The notes under the pieces were generated by a model. It had not been told where the DNA came from. It ran no database searches and was given only the letters and a program-made list of their open reading frames with translations. Source: Agaribacillus aureus (GTDB lineage: Bacteria > Bacteroidota > Bacteroidia > Cytophagales > Cyclobacteriaceae). From it: DNA of 64,000 nucleotides. Of the stretch, positions 39,763 through 46,365 are shown piece by piece (the stretch's first letter is position 1; every line of letters starts with the position of its first letter). Made by a program: the position numbers and the translations under genes. The DNA lies in contig JAUJEB010000001.1 of assembly GCA_030442055.1 (NCBI GenBank), positions 3,038,001 through 3,102,000 on the forward strand. Reading direction: 5' to 3'.

Positions 39763-40527
39763 ATGGCACTTACTATATATACCAAAAACGAGCAGGCCAC
39801 CGGTGAATTTGCAGCCGGTGCTATTAAAGAGAACAAGCCCCTCGGCTTCCCGCAGGAAGGCGGTAGCTTGCGCCCTTTTTCCTCTTTATTTTATTGGGCT
39901 CACGCCTGGTCAGATAAGGGAGGGTTGATTGGGGAACATCCACACCAGGGTTTTGAAATTATGTCTTTTGTGCTCGAAGGAGAAATCGAACATTATGATT
40001 CCCAGTTACGTGGTTGGAAAAGGCTTAGTAAGGGTGATGTTCAGATCATCAGATCAGGTAAGGGTATCACACATGCCGAAAGATTTTTACCCGGTGCTCA
40101 TATATTCCAAATTTGGGTAGATCCAGATCTGAAGAAAACGCTGCAAAAGCCGGCCAGCTATAATGACTATGGGTCCGGCAGCTTCCCGGAGACTGATCAT
40201 GGCGGTTATACCACCCGCCTGTTAAAAGGGGACGGCGCTCCTTTAACCATGGACGCGCAGGTGGACAGTATCAAAGAAATTAATTTTAATACAGGCCTTC
40301 ATTCACTTGAGTTGAATAGCGAAAATGTTCAGGGGTTGTACGTTATTGAAGGGGCATTAAAAATAAACGGGAATGACATGGGGCAGGATGATTTTGTTTT
40401 GATAAATGGAGAAACGCAAATTTCCATTGATGTTGAAAATACAACCAGGGTGTTTATCATTGATTTACCTGTCCATCCAGGGTACGAAACTTATGCCGAA
40501 ATGCAGGGTATTTCTACCCTTATTTAA
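39763..40527 (+). CDS. Pirin-family bicupin protein
   Basis: About 254 aa from the ATG at 39763 (a frame from 39706 adds 19 unlike residues). The N-terminal cupin carries the metal-binding pattern HPHQGFEIMSFVLEGEIEHY, and the segment VQIIRSGKGITHAE matches pirin. Bacterial pirins bind iron or zinc; some are quercetinases, others act on pyruvate metabolism or stress. It is a cytoplasmic protein. The next gene block begins with a strong promoter 40 bp downstream, so it is transcribed separately. Confidence 0.87.
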   Translation: MALTIYTKNEQATGEFAAGAIKENKPLGFPQEGGSLRPFSSLFYWAHAWSDKGGLIGEHPHQGFEIMSFVLEGEIEHYDSQLRGWKRLSKGDVQIIRSGKGITHAERFLPGAHIFQIWVDPDLKKTLQKPASYNDYGSGSFPETDHGGYTTRLLKGDGAPLTMDAQVDSIKEINFNTGLHSLELNSENVQGLYVIEGALKINGNDMGQDDFVLINGETQISIDVENTTRVFIIDLPVHPGYETYAEMQGISTLI

Positions 40528-40568
40528 CTATTTTTTAAAAAAACTAAACTTAAGTAATTTGAAATCCG

Positions 40569-40600
40569 TTTGGAAACATAATAATAACCTATTACCTTTG
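40569..40600 (+). promoter_or_regulatory. Consensus promoter of the sulfur-assimilation operon
   Basis: TTTG (40569-40572), a 20-bp spacer and TACCTTTG (40593-40600) match the Bacteroidota consensus exactly. Transcription would start near 40606, about 25 nt before the SAM-I riboswitch. Confidence 0.78.
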
Positions 40601-40630
40601 AACTTTCAAGTCAATTATATCTGTAATTGA

Positions 40631-40743
40631 TTTATAAAGAAGCGCGGAGAGACAGGCTCTGTGAAGCGCTAGCAACCATATCAGAAAATATTGAAATGAT
40701 AGAAGGTGCTAATTCCTGATCCCGACAGGCGGGAGAATATAAA
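40631..40743 (+). ncRNA. SAM-I (S-box) riboswitch
   Basis: The aptamer has P1 arms TTTATA (40631-40636) and TATAAA (40738-40743), and P2 arms AGCGC (40641-40645) and GCGCT (40666-40670). It also has the S-box core TGTGAAGCGCTAGCAACC and the invariant GGTGCTAATTCC segment of J3/4. P4 is TCCCG-ACAGG-CGGGA. Binding S-adenosylmethionine stabilises P1. It precedes ferredoxin and metZ, fitting control of methionine synthesis. No T-run terminator directly follows, and a leader ORF begins 11 nt after P1, so the expression platform is probably translational or acts through the leader. Confidence 0.9.
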
Positions 40744-40754
40744 TTAATGAAAAT

Positions 40755-40871
40755 ATGAAAAATAGTGCAAATCTTCTAACAACCGAAAGAACCTCATTTT
40801 TGAGCACCTCAACTATTTCCAACTTGGCAAATAAATACATGTTTGAGTGCTGTTGTTGCTGTTGTTGTTAA
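40755..40871 (+). CDS. Leader peptide ending in seven consecutive cysteines
   Basis: A 38-codon ORF between the SAM-I riboswitch and the ferredoxin gene. The peptide starts MKNSANLLTTERTSFLSTS and ends FE followed by seven Cys (TGC TGT TGT TGC TGT TGT TGT) and TAA at 40869. Its position in a sulfur operon suggests a cysteine-sensing leader at which ribosomes stall when Cys-tRNA is short. Ten nucleotides after the stop a hairpin (ATTTATCTT to AAGATAAAT, 40882-40904) is followed by CCTAAG/CTTAGG (40906-40911 and 40922-40927). No T-run follows either, so the mechanism differs from the second leader. Strength of translation initiation is uncertain. Confidence 0.68.
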   Translation: MKNSANLLTTERTSFLSTSTISNLANKYMFECCCCCCC

Positions 40872-41015: not shown

Positions 41016-41363
41016 ATGGCATTAATGATAACAGATGAATGTATTAACTGCGGAGCTTGCGAACCGGAGTGCCCAAATACAGCCATCTACGAAGGTGGTG
41101 TGAATTGGAAATGGGGAGAAGGAAACGGGTTGACAGAAATTGAGGATGGCCAGGGAAACATTGTTGATGCCCAGGAGGACCAGGAACCCGTATCTGAGGA
41201 TTTCTATTTTATTGTGAGCGGGAAATGTACAGAATGCACCGGCTTTCATGAAGAGCCCCAATGTGCAGCCGTTTGCCCGGTTGACTGCTGTGTAGAAGAC
41301 CCGGATCATCCGGAAAACGAGGAAGAGCTGTTGGCAAAAAAAGAGAGCTTACACCTTATCTAA
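41016..41363 (+). CDS. 4Fe-4S dicluster ferredoxin
   Basis: A 115-aa ferredoxin. The first cluster motif is [12 protein letters not shown] near residue 9; the second is [20 protein letters not shown] near residue 70, with a longer loop between the second and third cysteines, as in YfhL/Alvin-type ferredoxins. It is soluble and cytoplasmic. It could supply electrons to the sulfite reductase and APS reductase genes further downstream. It begins 145 bp after the Cys leader and is 31 bp upstream of metZ. Confidence 0.92.
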
Positions 41364-41394: not shown

Positions 41395-42573
41395 ATGAGT
41401 GAATTCAAACATATAGAGACCCAAGCCATTAGAACACAAAACGGCAAAGCATCATACAGGGAGCACTCTGCCCCGATCTATATGACTTCGAGTTTTACTT
41501 TTGAAGATGCCGAGCAGGCCAGGGCACTGTTTGCCGATGAGATTGACGGTAACATTTATACCCGGTTTTCAAATCCCAATAACTCGGAATTTATTGAAAA
41601 ACTTTGCTTGCTGGAGGAAACAGCGGATGGTGTTCCCACCGCCTCTGGTATGGCAGCTATGTTTTCGAGCATGGCGGCATTGCTGGAATCGGGAGACCAC
41701 GTGTTGTCCTCGCGATCGATTTTTGGTTCTACACACCAGATTTTCACACAGATATTTCCAAAGTGGGGCATCGAGCATACTTATGCAGATATCAATAATC
41801 CATCTGATTGGGAGGCTAAAATCAAACCTAATACAAAGATGATTTTTGCTGAGACCCCTTCCAATCCAGGACTGGATTTGATAGATCTCGAGTGGTTAGG
41901 GCAACTGGCAGAAAAACACGGCCTTATTTTAAACATTGATAACTGCTTTGCCACACCAATCCTGCAACAGCCATCAAAATTTGGCGCACACCTGATTACT
42001 CATTCGGCCACCAAGTTTATTGATGGCCAGGGCAGAACCATTGGCGGTGCCATTCTAGGCAGACAGGATCTGATCGACAAGGTAAGGTTCTTTATTCGTC
42101 ACACAGGCCCCTCCTTGTCGCCCTTCAACGGCTGGCTGCTTTCGAAAAGCCTGGAAACATTGCCGCTGAGGATGTCAAAACACTGCGAGAATGCTAAGAA
42201 AATCGCAGAATACCTGGAGGGACATGAAGAGCTGGAATCGGTTAAATATCCATTTCTCAAATCACACCCACAATATGAGCTGGCTAAAAAGCAAATGAAA
42301 TATGGTGGTGGATTAATCACATTTATCGTAAAAGGTGGATTGGAAAGAGGAAAAAGATTTTTGAACAGTTTAAATATGTTATCATTTACTGCCAATCTGG
42401 GAGATTCCAGGACGATAGCCACGCATCCTACTTCGACCACACACTCGAAACTTTCGGAGGAGGACAGACAGGCTGTTGGCATTTCACCCGGGCTGATCCG
42501 CATTTCAGTGGGCCTGGAAAATGTAAATGATATATTGGAAGACATTGTAAATGCACTAAATGCATCAAAGTAA
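41395..42573 (+). CDS. metZ: O-succinylhomoserine sulfhydrylase (Cys/Met metabolism PLP enzyme)
   Basis: A 392-aa PLP-dependent enzyme of the gamma family that forms homocysteine from an activated homoserine and sulfide. Key segments: TQAIRTQNGKASYREHSAPI, NIYTRFSNPN, the cofactor region ASGMAAMFSSMAALL, and the PLP lysine in HSATKFIDGQGRTIGG. It ends with SPGLIRISVGLEN. Related cystathionine gamma-synthases are hard to exclude, but NPN and DGQGR patterns favour MetZ. It is followed by a Cys-rich leader and terminator 27 bp after its stop, so expression past this point can be limited. Confidence 0.85.
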   Translation: MSEFKHIETQAIRTQNGKASYREHSAPIYMTSSFTFEDAEQARALFADEIDGNIYTRFSNPNNSEFIEKLCLLEETADGVPTASGMAAMFSSMAALLESGDHVLSSRSIFGSTHQIFTQIFPKWGIEHTYADINNPSDWEAKIKPNTKMIFAETPSNPGLDLIDLEWLGQLAEKHGLILNIDNCFATPILQQPSKFGAHLITHSATKFIDGQGRTIGGAILGRQDLIDKVRFFIRHTGPSLSPFNGWLLSKSLETLPLRMSKHCENAKKIAEYLEGHEELESVKYPFLKSHPQYELAKKQMKYGGGLITFIVKGGLERGKRFLNSLNMLSFTANLGDSRTIATHPTSTTHSKLSEEDRQAVGISPGLIRISVGLENVNDILEDIVNALNASK

Positions 42574-42600
42574 ATCGTGAAAACAAAAAGATATAATATA

Positions 42601-42681
42601 ATGCCCCTTTGTATGATCAACATTTGTATGATGGTCTGTTTTTGTTGTTGTCGAAACTGTATCAGCAGGGGGTTTCTGTAG
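42601..42681 (+). CDS. Cysteine-rich leader peptide of an attenuator
   Basis: A 26-codon ORF, MPLCMINICMMVCFCCCRNC followed by ISRGFL, with seven Cys codons at positions 4, 9, 13, 15, 16, 17 and 20, all TGT. It precedes a terminator in the 205-bp gap between metZ and the sulfite reductase gene. A pause hairpin (GAAAC at 42653-42657 with GTTTC at 42672-42676) overlaps its last codons. The segment TCAGCAGG at 42662-42669, directly downstream of the Cys run, can pair with the terminator region. The arrangement matches amino-acid attenuators such as trp, with cysteine as the sensed amino acid. Confidence 0.8.
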   Translation: MPLCMINICMMVCFCCCRNCISRGFL

Positions 42682-42741
42682 TTTTATGTAAGCTCAATCA
42701 GAAATAAAAAGCCTTCCTGCTGACGCCGGAGGGCTTTTTTT
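42662..42741 (+). terminator. Attenuator: antiterminator and intrinsic terminator before the sulfite reductase gene
   Basis: The terminator stem AGCCTTCC (42710-42717) pairs with GGAGGGCT (42728-42735) with one G-U pair, followed by T's at 42735-42741 and preceded by A's that extend the stem. The competing antiterminator pairs TCAGCAGG (42662-42669) with CCTGCTGA (42716-42723), eight perfect pairs that use two bases of the terminator's left arm and its loop. Ribosomes stalled on Cys codons leave TCAGCAGG free and prevent termination; ribosomes reaching the stop codon cover it and allow termination. Confidence 0.82.
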
Positions 42742-42777: not shown

Positions 42778-44937
42778 ATGGAATCAAAATTAAGCAACAA
42801 AATTTCAACCGAAGCTAAAGAAGATATTCGGGAATTAGTGGAAAAGATCGGCCGTTTTCATAACGGTGAGATCGATGAAGATAAGTTCAAGGCCTACAGG
42901 CTCACCAGGGGCGTTTACGGGCAGAGACAAGTGGGCGTACAAATGTTTCGTACCAAAATACCTTATGGCAGGCTGACCAGCGACCAACTCATTCGCATTG
43001 CCGATGTATCGGAAAAATATACCAATGGCAACTTGCATACCACCACTCGCCAGAATATTCAGTTGCACTATGTAAAGCTTGACGACAGCCCAGCCATTTG
43101 GACTGAACTGGAAGAAGTTGGCGTAACCGCCAGGGAAGCTTGTGGTAATACCGTACGAAACGTAACCGGCTCTGCCCTGGCAGGCATTGATCCCGACGAG
43201 CCATTTGACATTACGGCTTATGCCGAGGCCACTTTCAGGTATTTCCTGAGAAATCCAATATGCCAGGACATGGGAAGAAAAATAAAAATAGCCTTTTCCT
43301 CCAGCAGCAAAGACTCCGCCTTCGCCTACTTTCATGACTTTGGATTTATCCCGGTAGTCAAAACAGAAAATGGCAAGGAAGTAAGAGGTTTTAAAACACT
43401 GATAGGTGGTGGCCTGGGTGCCCAGTCGATTGTAGCAAAAACAGCTTTTGAGTTTTTGCCTGAGGATCAAATTATTCCATTCACCGAAGCAGCGATCAGG
43501 GTTTTTGATCGGTATGGAGAACGGGAAAAAAGGTTTAAGGCCAGGATGAAATTCTTGATCGATGAAAAACGTGGATTGGGATTTGAAAAATTCATGGAGC
43601 TTGTGGAAAAAGAGCGTAAATCCATTCCACACCAGTCCTATCCTATCGACAGAACGCTGGTACCGGAACTTGTATTACCACCAAAACAAGATTATCCGGA
43701 AGTAGCCATAGCGGATGAAGAGAAATATCAGGACTGGCTCACTTCCAATGTGTTTGAGCAAAAGCAAAAAGGATTTCACGGCGTACAGATTAAACTGTCT
43801 AATGGTAATATCGATGCTGAAAGGGCCCGTAAATTGTCGGCGATTATAAAAAAGTATGCCGGTGATGATTTACGGATCACGGTTAATCAAGGCTTCCTGC
43901 TTAAATACGTTGAAACAAAGGCACTGCCTGTGGTATTTAATGAACTGAATGCGCTTGGGCTGGCCGAGTATGGCTTCGGTACCATTGCCGATATAACTGC
44001 ATGCCCTGGTACAGATACCTGTAACCTTGGTGTAAGTAACAGTACAGGTGTAGCTGAGGTGCTTGAAGGGATCATCAAAGAAGAATATAAAGACCTAATC
44101 TTTGATGCAGACATACAGATTAAAATCAGTGGTTGTATGAACTCTTGCGGTCAGCATATGGCCGCCAATATTGGATTTCATGGAAGCTCCATAAAAAACG
44201 GGAAGCTGGTAGTTCCCGCACTGGTCGTATTGCTTGGCGGAGGTGTTGATCCGGAGGGACAGGGATCTGTGGGAGACAAGGTTGCTAAATTGCCTTCAAA
44301 AAAGGCACCGGAAGCGCTGAGAATTATCTTAGACGATTACAAGGAAAATGCATTACCCGGGGAATACTTCAATAGCTACTATAGACGATATGGAAAAATA
44401 TATTTCTTTGACTTGCTAAAGCATCTAATTGACCCCAACCAGTTTATCCAGTCCGATTACATCGACTGGGGAGCGACAGATAACTTTGTGCCCGCTATCG
44501 GTGTTGGCGAATGTGCCGGAGTAAGTTACGATGTTATTGGAACCATTATCGATGACGCCAGTGAAAAACTGTCCATTGCCAAGAAAGAGTTGACCCGTAA
44601 TGAGTTTGCCCGCGTTATATACAATGCCTACAATACCCTGGTAATTGGTGCCAAAGGATTATTGTTGAGTGAAGATGTGAGCTGTAACACACATATAGGT
44701 ATTCTCAGGGATTTTGACAAACATTTTGTAAGTACCAATAAGTTTCCCCTGGAAGGAAATTTTGAAACACTGGTATTACAAATTAATGAAAATGAACCGG
44801 GAAGTGATTTTGCGATAGCATATCTGGAACAAGCTGAACAATTCTTACAGGATGTTAAAGCATATCGCGCCAGACAGGTGGCAGAGGATACCTCTCAAAA
44901 AGGAAAATTAGTAGTTGATAACTTTTACAAAGCATAG
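42778..44937 (+). CDS. Ferredoxin-type siroheme nitrite/sulfite reductase with C-terminal extension
   Basis: A 719-aa reductase. The two halves each carry an NIR/SIR ferredoxin-like half-domain and a siroheme domain. Cofactor ligands are C409 and C415 (TACPGTDTCNLGVSNS) and C453 and C457 (KISGCMNSCGQH), which bind the 4Fe-4S cluster coupled to siroheme. The substrate-side NGNLHTTTRQNIQLHYV is in the first half. The operon with metZ, cobA and cysH points to sulfite, not nitrite. The protein is some 150 residues longer than usual; the extra C-terminal part (about residue 565 on) is helical and of unknown function. It is downstream of the Cys attenuator. Confidence 0.9.
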   Translation: MESKLSNKISTEAKEDIRELVEKIGRFHNGEIDEDKFKAYRLTRGVYGQRQVGVQMFRTKIPYGRLTSDQLIRIADVSEKYTNGNLHTTTRQNIQLHYVKLDDSPAIWTELEEVGVTAREACGNTVRNVTGSALAGIDPDEPFDITAYAEATFRYFLRNPICQDMGRKIKIAFSSSSKDSAFAYFHDFGFIPVVKTENGKEVRGFKTLIGGGLGAQSIVAKTAFEFLPEDQIIPFTEAAIRVFDRYGEREKRFKARMKFLIDEKRGLGFEKFMELVEKERKSIPHQSYPIDRTLVPELVLPPKQDYPEVAIADEEKYQDWLTSNVFEQKQKGFHGVQIKLSNGNIDAERARKLSAIIKKYAGDDLRITVNQGFLLKYVETKALPVVFNELNALGLAEYGFGTIADITACPGTDTCNLGVSNSTGVAEVLEGIIKEEYKDLIFDADIQIKISGCMNSCGQHMAANIGFHGSSIKNGKLVVPALVVLLGGGVDPEGQGSVGDKVAKLPSKKAPEALRIILDDYKENALPGEYFNSYYRRYGKIYFFDLLKHLIDPNQFIQSDYIDWGATDNFVPAIGVGECAGVSYDVIGTIIDDASEKLSIAKKELTRNEFARVIYNAYNTLVIGAKGLLLSEDVSCNTHIGILRDFDKHFVSTNKFPLEGNFETLVLQINENEPGSDFAIAYLEQAEQFLQDVKAYRARQVAEDTSQKGKLVVDNFYKA

Positions 44938-44939
44938 TG

Positions 44940-45707
44940 ATGAAAGGTAAATTAACGTTAGTAGGCGCCGGTCCCGGAGATCCTGAATTAATCAGTATCA
45001 AGGGCATGAAGGCTATCAAAAATGCGGATGTCATTTTATATGATGCCCTGGCTCACCCGGATTTACTGGAATACGCCAGACCGGGTGCCGAAAAAATATA
45101 TGTTGGGAAAAGAGCTGGGAAACACGCTTTTAATCAGGAGGAAATTAATGAACTAATTGTCGCATATGCGCTACGCGGAAATCATGTAGTAAGGCTCAAA
45201 GGTGGAGATCCTTTCGTATTTGCTCATGGTAAAGAGGAGTTGGAATACGCGGAGACGTTTGGCATCGAATGTACAAGCGTCCTCGGAATCTCCAGTGTCA
45301 ATTTACCTGGCTTATACGGCATCCCTTTGACGCGAAGAGATGTCAATGAGAGTTTTTGGGTGGTCACCGCCACCACAAAAAATGGCACGCTTTCGAAGGA
45401 TGTATTCCTGGCAGCGCAATCTAATGCCACCGCTGTATTCCTCATGGGTTTGAATAAGCTGGAACAAATCACCGCTGTTTATAAAAAATTGGGCAGGGGC
45501 AATCTTCCCGCAGCATTGATTTCAAAGGGGTCTCTCGAAGATGGCAATGTCATATTTGGTACTGCGGCGACTTTGTTAGCCAAGCAACGATTACATCGGT
45601 TACCCACACCTGCGTTGGTCGTTGTTGGCGAAGCGGTTGGTACTCATGAGTATTTTTATGAAAAGGTGAAAGCATTGGAGCCATTTAACAACAACGCGAA
45701 ATATTAA
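44940..45707 (+). CDS. cobA: Uroporphyrinogen-III C-methyltransferase (siroheme synthesis)
   Basis: A 255-aa SAM-dependent enzyme that methylates uroporphyrinogen III twice to precorrin-2, the first step toward siroheme. It begins with KLTLVGAGPGDPELISIKG, has VVRLKGGDPFVFAHGKEELE, and ends with PALVVVGEAVG. The gene encodes only this activity, with no CysG-like dehydrogenase/ferrochelatase domain. The siroheme it leads to is needed by the adjacent reductase. The ATG at 44940 lies 2 bp after the preceding stop (TAGTGATG), so translation is coupled. Confidence 0.93.
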   Translation: MKGKLTLVGAGPGDPELISIKGMKAIKNADVILYDALAHPDLLEYARPGAEKIYVGKRAGKHAFNQEEINELIVAYALRGNHVVRLKGGDPFVFAHGKEELEYAETFGIECTSVLGISSVNLPGLYGIPLTRRDVNESFWVVTATTKNGTLSKDVFLAAQSNATAVFLMGLNKLEQITAVYKKLGRGNLPAALISKGSLEDGNVIFGTAATLLAKQRLHRLPTPALVVVGEAVGTHEYFYEKVKALEPFNNNAKY

Positions 45708-45711
45708 TATC

Positions 45712-46365
45712 ATGAATAAGCTATTGCAAAAAGATAATTATAGCGCATTGACTTCCAGGCAACGGCTGGAAAAGCTGTTTGATGAGCATGATAACGCTAA
45801 AATTCTGGTGACTTCCTCATTTGGAAGTACATCAGTAGTGTTATTGCATATGATAAGTCAGGTTAAACCAGATCACCCGATACATTTTATAGATACCGGC
45901 TTTCTTTTTCGGGAAACCCACGACTATAAAAAACAGTTGATTGAAAAGCTCGAACTTAATGTCGTAGATACAGTGGCCCGTGAAAACCGGCAGAAGTTTA
46001 CCAGAGAAAATCAAAGCTGGCGGTTTAACCACGATTTATGCTGCTTTATTAACAAAGTAGATCCAATCAACGATTTAAAGCCCGGTTTTGATATCTGGGT
46101 ATCCGGGCTTTTGGCTTATCAAAATGCCAACAGACGCCATATGCCTATTGTTGATTTTAAGGAAGACATCATCAAGTTTCATCCAATCATTGATATGACT
46201 GCAGCGGAGGTAAGCTTGTATATGACTATTTATGAACTCCCGGCACACCCGCTGGTTGCCCACGGCTATGACTCTATTGGATGTACTCATTGTACGCAAA
46301 AAGGGAAGGGAAGAGAAGGCCGATGGTTTGACAATGCAAAAACGGAATGTGGGTTGCACGCATGA
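45712..46365 (+). CDS. cysH: Adenylylsulfate (APS) reductase, thioredoxin-dependent
   Basis: A 217-aa enzyme that reduces activated sulfate to sulfite. The catalytic cysteine is C213 in the C-terminal ECGLH box. Four further cysteines, the pair C110-C111 (HDLCCFIN) and C191/C194 (GCTHC), form the 4Fe-4S site that marks the APS-using type, as in plants and many bacteria; PAPS-type enzymes lack it. The N-terminal loop TSSFGSTSVVLL is the nucleotide-binding loop of the family. It is the last gene of the sulfur operon, 4 bp after cobA. No ATP sulfurylase gene lies in the window. Confidence 0.92.
   Translation: MNKLLQKDNYSALTSRQRLEKLFDEHDNAKILVTSSFGSTSVVLLHMISQVKPDHPIHFIDTGFLFRETHDYKKQLIEKLELNVVDTVARENRQKFTRENQSWRFNHDLCCFINKVDPINDLKPGFDIWVSGLLAYQNANRRHMPIVDFKEDIIKFHPIIDMTAAEVSLYMTIYELPAHPLVAHGYDSIGCTHCTQKGKGREGRWFDNAKTECGLHA

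What the first reader, a model, noticed from the sequence alone, without database searches (positions are those of the whole stretch)
42601..42741. Complete cysteine attenuator (leader peptide, antiterminator, terminator) before the sulfite reductase gene
In the gap between metZ and the siroheme reductase there is a 26-codon leader with seven TGT codons, three of them in a row. It is followed by three competing RNA folds: a pause hairpin GAAAC/GTTTC (42653-42676), an eight-pair antiterminator (42662-42669 with 42716-42723), and a U-tailed terminator (42710-42741). The antiterminator arm starts right after the Cys codons, exactly where a stalled ribosome would leave it free. This is the trp attenuator logic applied to cysteine. 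The parts are seen in the sequence; the mechanism is inferred.
Basis: partly seen in the sequence, partly recalled or inferred. Interest (0 to 1): 0.92.

Follow-up and report, generated by a model that had tools for sequence, protein, structure and literature searches.

The report
Cysteine attenuator before sulfite reductase
A short cysteine-rich reading frame and two competing RNA folds in front of the sulfite reductase gene form a switch that should turn sulfur assimilation on when cysteine runs short, and the same kind of switch recurs in many related bacteria, sometimes doubled and sometimes joined to a second RNA sensor for SAM (S-adenosylmethionine).

Summary
The attenuator is real and conserved. 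The pause hairpin is no better than chance and is lost in the sister species; the start is more likely GTG 42577 than ATG 42601. Of 165 distinct sulfite reductase (sir) upstream regions from Bacteroidota, 98 hold a Cys-rich leader ORF (99 less one false positive) and 87 have leader plus terminator. The segment after the last clustered Cys codon pairs with the terminator's 5' arm (median -14.1 kcal/mol; -5.1 for the pre-Cys control; 85 modules). The pairing arm starts 9-17 nt after that codon in 70% of 102 modules (24% in shuffles), where a stalled ribosome would leave RNA free. Thirty cysS loci show no such leader, thirty cysD loci one weak candidate. The switch lies inside an operon, behind metZ. 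Fifteen relatives carry two complete modules in series. The mechanism is inferred; no expression data were available.

The parts
40569..40600 (+). Bacteroidetes-type promoter-like site (TTTG ... TAnnTTTG), the only one found in the two stretches scanned for it (40520-40640 and 42380-42640)
   Evidence: Script pattern match; the consensus is recalled, not from a call; no expression data
40629..40745 (+). SAM-I riboswitch aptamer (RF00162) at the operon head
   Evidence: Rfam cmscan 76.8 bits, gathering 44.4; also found in 13 of 15 relatives scanned, not in L042 and L109
40755..40871 (+). Second poly-Cys leader ORF, MKNSANLLTTERTSFLSTSTISNLANKYMFECCCCCCC*, opening 9 nt after the aptamer, Cys run against the stop codon, no intrinsic terminator found in the 320 nt after the aptamer
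   Evidence: TGY x4 occurs only here in the window; 12 of 13 SAM-bearing relatives have the like, L035 does not
41016..41363 (+). YfhL-like 4Fe-4S ferredoxin gene (fdx)
   Evidence: NCBIfam NF033683 above cut-off
41395..42573 (+). metZ-like sulfhydrylase gene (below the curated cut-off for O-succinylhomoserine sulfhydrylase)
   Evidence: Pfam Cys_Met_Meta_PP; NF006003 500 bits, cut-off 522
42577..42681 (+). Cys leader ORF; start GTG 42577 more likely than ATG 42601; Cys codons at 42610, 42625, 42637, 42643, 42646, 42649, 42658
   Evidence: start inferred from the alignment with L032
42643..42651 (+). Three successive TGT codons, the inferred control codons
   Evidence: the pairing arm starts about 10 nt downstream
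42662..42672 (+). Antiterminator 5' arm, inside the leader ORF
   Evidence: 42662-42669 unchanged in L032, one change within 42670-42672
42713..42723 (+). Antiterminator 3' arm (5' side and loop of the terminator)
   Evidence: unchanged in L032
42706..42741 (+). Intrinsic terminator: stem 42706-42717/42728-42739 with U tract
42778..44937 (+). sir: siroheme nitrite/sulfite reductase-type gene
   Evidence: Pfam NIR_SIR and NIR_SIR_ferr; NirA-family and sulfite reductase models hit below their cut-offs
44937..45707 (+). uroporphyrinogen-III C-methyltransferase (siroheme synthesis)
   Evidence: TIGR01469 and NF004790 above cut-off
45712..46365 (+). phosphoadenylyl-sulfate reductase-like gene (cysH)
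   Evidence: NF002537 above cut-off

Best explanation
It is a ribosome-mediated transcription attenuator for cysteine, placed inside an operon. The RNA polymerase that has transcribed metZ goes on into the leader. If charged Cys-tRNA is scarce, the ribosome stalls on the Cys triplet (42643-42651); its front edge leaves 42662-42672 free, which pairs with 42713-42723, so the terminator cannot form and sir, the siroheme methyltransferase and cysH are transcribed. If cysteine is plentiful, the ribosome runs to the stop codon (42679-42681) and covers the 5' arm; the terminator forms and transcription ends near 42741. Shown: leader ORF, mutually exclusive pairings, spacing, conservation, gene context. 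Inferred: translation of the leader, stalling, the polarity of the response, and readthrough from the upstream promoter.
For: Cys leaders recur upstream of sir: 80 of 97 by the window test (78 outside ferredoxin genes), 98 of 165 by the module test, with TGT and TGC mixed in 113 of 122 modules. Terminator after the leader in 102 of 122 (shuffles 6 of 610). The post-Cys segment pairs with the terminator 5' arm: z below -1.64 in 63 of 85, pre-Cys control 5 of 85. The arm starts 9-17 nt after the last clustered Cys codon in 70% of 102 (shuffles 24%). Stalled-state folds give at least 6 antiterminator pairs in 97 of 102; shuffled-spacer folds 48% of 1020. Cognate arms beat swapped arms. Control genes: no such window in up to 1500 nt before 30 cysS loci; three in 30 cysD loci (L121 at -1434, L135 at -963, L137 at -339), only the last within 500 nt. 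Downstream genes fit sulfite reduction.
Against: No transcript, ribosome-profiling or reporter data. In the full leader the terminator is more stable than the antiterminator, so the switch needs co-transcriptional timing. Pairing reached p below 0.05 in 56 of 85 modules, not all, and a few fold poorly (L035, L095, L198). 67 of 165 sir regions lack a leader, among them 11 loci with cysD 2.3-2.7 kb upstream and 25 of 28 distinct phylum-level loci. The last Cys codon (42658) would put a stalled ribosome on the arm, so only the earlier ones fit. The loci are related, so counts are not independent trials.
Confidence: 0.88

Rival explanations
1. The leader encodes a functional Cys-rich small protein (for instance metal or redox binding) and the hairpin is just a terminator of metZ.
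For: The ORF is Cys-rich and recurs upstream of sir.
Against: In most loci little but the Cys run is shared: lengths, ends and other residues differ. The post-Cys DNA is complementary to the terminator arm, which a protein would not need. Leaders also occur where no metZ was found just before sir: 57 loci with a leader and without metZ against 31 with both, among loci with at least 1400 nt upstream.
Confidence: 0.04
2. The UGY repeat is an RNA-level motif (protein binding or repeat expansion), not a set of codons.
For: The run is repetitive DNA and TGT dominates (544 TGT, 216 TGC in leaders).
Against: 113 of 122 modules mix TGT and TGC; interrupted runs (such as CCMCCVCCC, CKMCCCKCC) keep one frame with a start and a stop; such windows are rare on the reverse strand (1 of 97; 10 of 165) and in shuffles (about 2.6%).
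Confidence: 0.03
3. The leader peptide arrests the ribosome by its own sequence (with free cysteine or another sulfur compound as ligand) instead of by lack of charged tRNA.
For: In one clade the leader peptide itself is conserved: N.K..[AS]..R[CR]ACW[FYH]WCC, in 21 of 245 family genomes, all 21 before sir. In the 19 rows tabulated, N, K, A and the last C, which my motif did not demand, are also invariant, and Arg uses 5 codons and Ala 4.
Against: The window's leader and most others show no such conservation outside the Cys codons; the window's genome has no match at E 0.1.
Confidence: 0.05

Closest known systems
Leader-peptide transcription attenuators of the trp/his/leu type (recalled; actinobacterial trp cases seen in passages of PMC1262725)
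   Same: Leader ORF with regulatory codons, antiterminator and terminator that exclude each other, genes that make the sensed amino acid
   Different: Senses cysteine; lies inside an operon behind metZ, with the leader start a median 10 nt from the metZ stop and overlapping it as ATGA in 8 of 31 loci; no supported protector or pause hairpin in the window; some relatives carry two in series
uORFC-8-2 motif before cysS in Rhodobacterales (PMC8632094, passages seen)
   Same: Cys codons in a uORF followed by an intrinsic terminator, proposed as ribosome-mediated attenuation
   Different: Other phylum and gene; two conserved Cys codons there, longer runs here; no such leader before the 30 cysS loci read in this family
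Poly-cysteine leaders of cys operons in Mycobacterium, P. acnes and B. longum cbs (PMC1262725, passages seen; Canestrari 2020 seen only as a citation in PMC13236596, text not held)
   Same: Runs of Cys codons in a short ORF before cysteine genes
   Different: There the run is near the stop and no terminator was found, and PMC13236596 speaks of translation attenuation; here the sir-type leader has a terminator and a median 10 codons between run and stop. The SAM-linked leaders resemble the mycobacterial layout more
SAM-II riboswitch before S. meliloti metA acting on an AUG at a distance (PMC9373788, abstract and outline read)
   Same: A SAM riboswitch whose output is translation initiation
   Different: Other riboswitch class; its abstract mentions no Cys-rich leader

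Membership tests
Ribosome-mediated leader-peptide transcription attenuator | Short leader ORF with codons for the regulated amino acid | tested here: met
   7 Cys of 26 codons; recurs in 98 of 165 sir loci
Ribosome-mediated leader-peptide transcription attenuator | Intrinsic terminator between leader and gene | tested here: met
   102 of 122 modules, shuffles 6 of 610
Ribosome-mediated leader-peptide transcription attenuator | Antiterminator that excludes the terminator and whose 5' arm lies ahead of a ribosome stalled on the control codons | tested here: met
   Sequence and predicted folds only:
Ribosome-mediated leader-peptide transcription attenuator | Protector/pause (1:2) hairpin | tested here: not met
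   z -0.27; 3' arm changed in L032. I count this as accessory: a ribosome at the stop codon would mask the arm
Ribosome-mediated leader-peptide transcription attenuator | Downstream genes make the sensed amino acid | tested here: met
   sir, siroheme methyltransferase, cysH by Pfam/NCBIfam
Ribosome-mediated leader-peptide transcription attenuator | Leader translated; readthrough follows charged tRNA | not testable with these tools
   No expression or ribosome-profiling data
Mycobacterial poly-cysteine uORF | Cys run near the stop codon, no terminator | tested here: not met
   For the sir-type leader: terminator present, median 10 codons from run to stop. The SAM-linked leader 40755-40871 does show both points
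SAM-I riboswitch (RF00162), element 40629-40745 | Covariance model score above the gathering threshold | tested here: met
   76.8 bits against 44.4
Arrest peptide (TnaC/SecM kind, recalled), clade with CACW[FYH]WCC | Conserved nascent-peptide residues upstream of the stall site | tested here: met
   Peptide conserved with synonymous codon change; the stall site itself is a guess
Arrest peptide (TnaC/SecM kind, recalled), clade with CACW[FYH]WCC | Ribosome arrest dependent on peptide sequence or a ligand | not testable with these tools
   Needs toeprinting

The most novel reading that the evidence does not exclude
The operon is governed by a two-input, two-stage RNA circuit. At its head a SAM-I riboswitch controls whether a poly-Cys leader can be translated (its start lies 9 nt after the aptamer), and a ribosome stalled on the Cys run against the stop codon then decides, by shielding a G-poor, C-richer stretch from Rho, whether transcription goes on into the ferredoxin and metZ genes. 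Further down, a second Cys leader with its own terminator decides whether sir and its partners are made. The composite SAM-plus-Cys element would be a riboswitch that gates a leader peptide.
Probability: 0.45. Interest if true: 0.85.

Novelty: new variant of a known kind. Interest (0 to 1): 0.72.

Why it matters
The searches made here (open-access library only, listings and passages) turned up no paper on leader-peptide control of sulfur assimilation in Bacteroidota. The sample shows a cysteine switch in records named Cytophagales, Saprospiraceae and Chitinophagales among others, built inside operons, doubled in series in 15 loci, and in one clade tied to a conserved peptide that looks like an arrest peptide. 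The link of a SAM riboswitch to a poly-Cys leader would let one mRNA weigh methionine against cysteine supply, and gives a directly testable case of a riboswitch that gates a leader peptide.

Tried and rejected
Pause hairpin: rejected. Pairing of the SAM-linked Cys run with the downstream gene start (mycobacterial-like translational masking): no support, mean z -0.09, 3 of 44 below -1.64 (45 loci, one with too short a gap dropped). Cys leaders before cysS: none in 30 loci; before cysD: three windows in 30 loci, at -1434, -963 and -339. Other TGY x3 places in the window (9169, 11702, 11759, 28133, 28192, 47159): I saw no leader there. Rho idea for the SAM-linked leaders: C exceeds G between leader and gene in 43 of 44, but controls lean the same way (24 of 35, 42 of 59, 51 of 72), so it is suggestive only. 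The first upstream scans read 11 minus-strand loci in the wrong orientation; corrected. Later counts are used, except the shuffle rate (about 2.6%), which came from the uncorrected set.

Rows dropped and limits: of 110 sir loci, L089 (3 nt upstream) and 12 duplicates were dropped to give 97; L229 was dropped as a duplicate. L040 is a false module (its hits lie in a ferredoxin gene) but sits inside the counts 99 and 122; L040, L053 and L227 are ferredoxin hits inside the window-test counts 80 and 94 (78 and 91 without them). The module definition was widened, after I had seen the CACWFW clade, to admit it. Of the family genomes with sir (76 of 98), five rows were never fetched; of 47 phylum-level matches 17 rows were not read. 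cysD: 30 loci read, 56 genomes had a match; cysS: 30 loci read, 36 genomes had a match. SAM riboswitches: 90 loci read of a longer, cut list; some fetched rows were chosen because they lie near sir, so 34 of 90 is not a random estimate. Three SAM loci with a sulfhydrylase match (L293, L352, L358) fell outside the 43-member cluster because another ORF came first; none has a Cys tail. The terminator-like calls after the SAM aptamer in L044 and L054 overlap the Cys run and I set them aside. In one search my motif itself demanded R, C, W and C at four places, so those are invariant by construction; L260 and L261 (H in place of F/Y) were left out of that table and read.

Full report
Setting. The window lies in a 9.39 Mb genome (G000); the best genome contigs matches to its sir are a Cytophagales MAG (83% identity) and Splendidivirga corallicola (68%). 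The local operon reads: promoter-like site 40569-40600, SAM-I riboswitch 40629-40745, ferredoxin 41016-41363, metZ-like 41395-42573, leader, sir 42778-44937, siroheme methyltransferase 44937-45707, cysH 45712-46365.

The observation. Leader, terminator and antiterminator are as described. The 96-nt stretch from 42650 folds at -29.9 kcal/mol, z -2.9, with the terminator; the transcript cut at 42730, before the terminator is complete, folds into the antiterminator at -21.9. The pause hairpin is not supported. Alignment with the same-genus locus L032 shows that ATG 42601 is not shared, whereas GTG 42577 lines up in frame with the L032 start.

Conservation of the Cys codons. I gathered 110 sir loci; after removing one short and 12 duplicate rows 97 were left. 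80 have at least 4 Cys codons in an open 10-codon window within 400 nt (78 outside ferredoxin genes), against 1 of 97 on the reverse strand. With 68 further loci the same test gives 94 of 165 (91 outside ferredoxin genes; reverse strand 10 of 165), and the module test 99 of 165, 98 without L040. The leaders differ in length and in most residues other than Cys. In 31 loci with metZ before the leader, the first leader start called by the script is a median 10 nt from the metZ stop and overlaps it as ATGA in 8: the attenuator is inside the operon and probably coupled to metZ translation. Leaders also occur without metZ (57 loci).

Conservation of the folds. Terminators follow 102 of 122 modules (shuffles 6 of 610). 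In 85 modules the segment after the last clustered Cys codon pairs with the terminator's 5' arm and loop at a median -14.1 kcal/mol, mean z -2.45; an equal stretch before the Cys run gives -5.1 and +0.07; 56 of 85 reach p below 0.05. In 102 modules the pairing arm starts 9-17 nt past that codon in 70% (24% in shuffles). Each arm fits its own terminator better than others (median -13.95, off-diagonal mean -9.0; own terminator in the best tenth for 64 of 102, best of all for 16). I read this as covariation without an alignment. The bound on the arm's end relative to the stop codon was built into my definition and is not evidence.

Specificity. No such window was seen in up to 1500 nt before 30 cysS loci; three were seen in 30 cysD loci, one of them within 500 nt (L137, -339). 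Eleven loci with cysD 2.3-2.7 kb before sir have no leader, and only 3 of 28 distinct phylum-level loci have one.

Tandem switches. Fifteen loci have two complete modules in series, 10 of them in records named Saprospiraceae. In 14 of 15 the summed cognate pairings beat the swapped ones; L038 is the exception (my sums).

A second leader in the window. Behind the SAM aptamer, ORF 40755-40871 ends in seven Cys codons against the stop. Of 13 relatives with a SAM aptamer, 12 have such an ORF starting 8-11 nt after it; L035 does not. Of 90 SAM riboswitch loci read in the family (not a random set), 34 have an ORF with at least 3 Cys in its last 14 residues (control ORFs 6 of 487): 25 of 43 before sulfhydrylase-like genes, 4 of 4 before fdx-metZ, 3 of 4 before sir, 2 before other genes, 0 of 29 before metH-like genes (Fisher 7.6e-8 for 25/43 against 0/29). 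No intrinsic terminator was called within about 220 nt after the aptamer in these 34, and the Cys run abuts the stop (0-1 residues after the last Cys in 27 of 34), unlike the sir type. So the two leader types differ in layout and probably in mechanism. The window's genome has a second such composite (L348, ending CCC) before a sulfhydrylase-like gene and a plain SAM riboswitch before a metH-like gene (L355).

A peptide-conserved clade. In 21 of 245 family genomes (E 5.1e-14 or better; next best 1.3e-3) the sir leader carries N.K..[AS]..R[CR]ACW[FYH]WCC; all 21 lie before sir. Among the 19 rows tabulated Arg uses 5 codons and Ala 4, so the constraint is on the peptide. The class-level search of 295 genomes gave nothing better than 6.4e-4.

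Against what is known. Passages seen: PMC1262725, PMC8632094, PMC2965389, PMC13236596, PMC9723704, PMC4833913, PMC7366714; abstract and outline: PMC9373788. PMC9723704 reports clues for leader-peptide attenuation before amino-acid operons in Flavobacterium psychrophilum; its supplementary list was not read and could include a cysteine case. Nothing in the listings or in the passages seen describes a cysteine attenuator in Bacteroidota or a SAM riboswitch leading into a poly-Cys leader. Rfam gave only the SAM riboswitch at gathering threshold in the window and in 15 relatives.

Verdict. The finding is right in substance: a new variant of a known kind, strongly supported by comparison and untested by experiment.

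Noticed in passing
window 40755-40871: Second poly-Cys leader ORF (seven Cys codons against the stop) opening 9 nt after the SAM-I riboswitch; the arrangement recurs before sulfhydrylase-like and sir genes in the family.
   Followed up: partly
L241-L261 (sir upstream regions of 21 genomes): Leader peptide with conserved N.K..[AS]..R[CR]ACW[FYH]WCC, constrained at peptide level; resembles an arrest peptide.
   Followed up: partly
L038, L045, L048, L049, L056, L059, L060, L064, L067, L072, L074, L075, L077, L079, L110: Two complete Cys leader-terminator modules in series before sir.
   Followed up: yes
L063, L098, L173, L176 (upstream of fdx or metZ): Cys-ended ORFs also before fdx or metZ at the operon head, in L173 and L098 together with a Cys-rich ORF before sir.
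   Followed up: partly
L371 (G027): SAM riboswitch with a leader ending in seven Cys codons before a RimK-like ATP-grasp gene (Pfam), outside the usual sulfhydrylase or sir setting.
   Followed up: no
L187, L194, L197, L201-L205, L207, L209, L210: sir loci with cysD 2.3-2.7 kb upstream and no Cys leader; how sir is controlled there is unknown.
   Followed up: no
G000:C1:3035487-3036941 and G000:C34:216381-217844: The window's genome has two cysS genes over the family cut-off, one about 1 kb outside the window's left edge.
   Followed up: no
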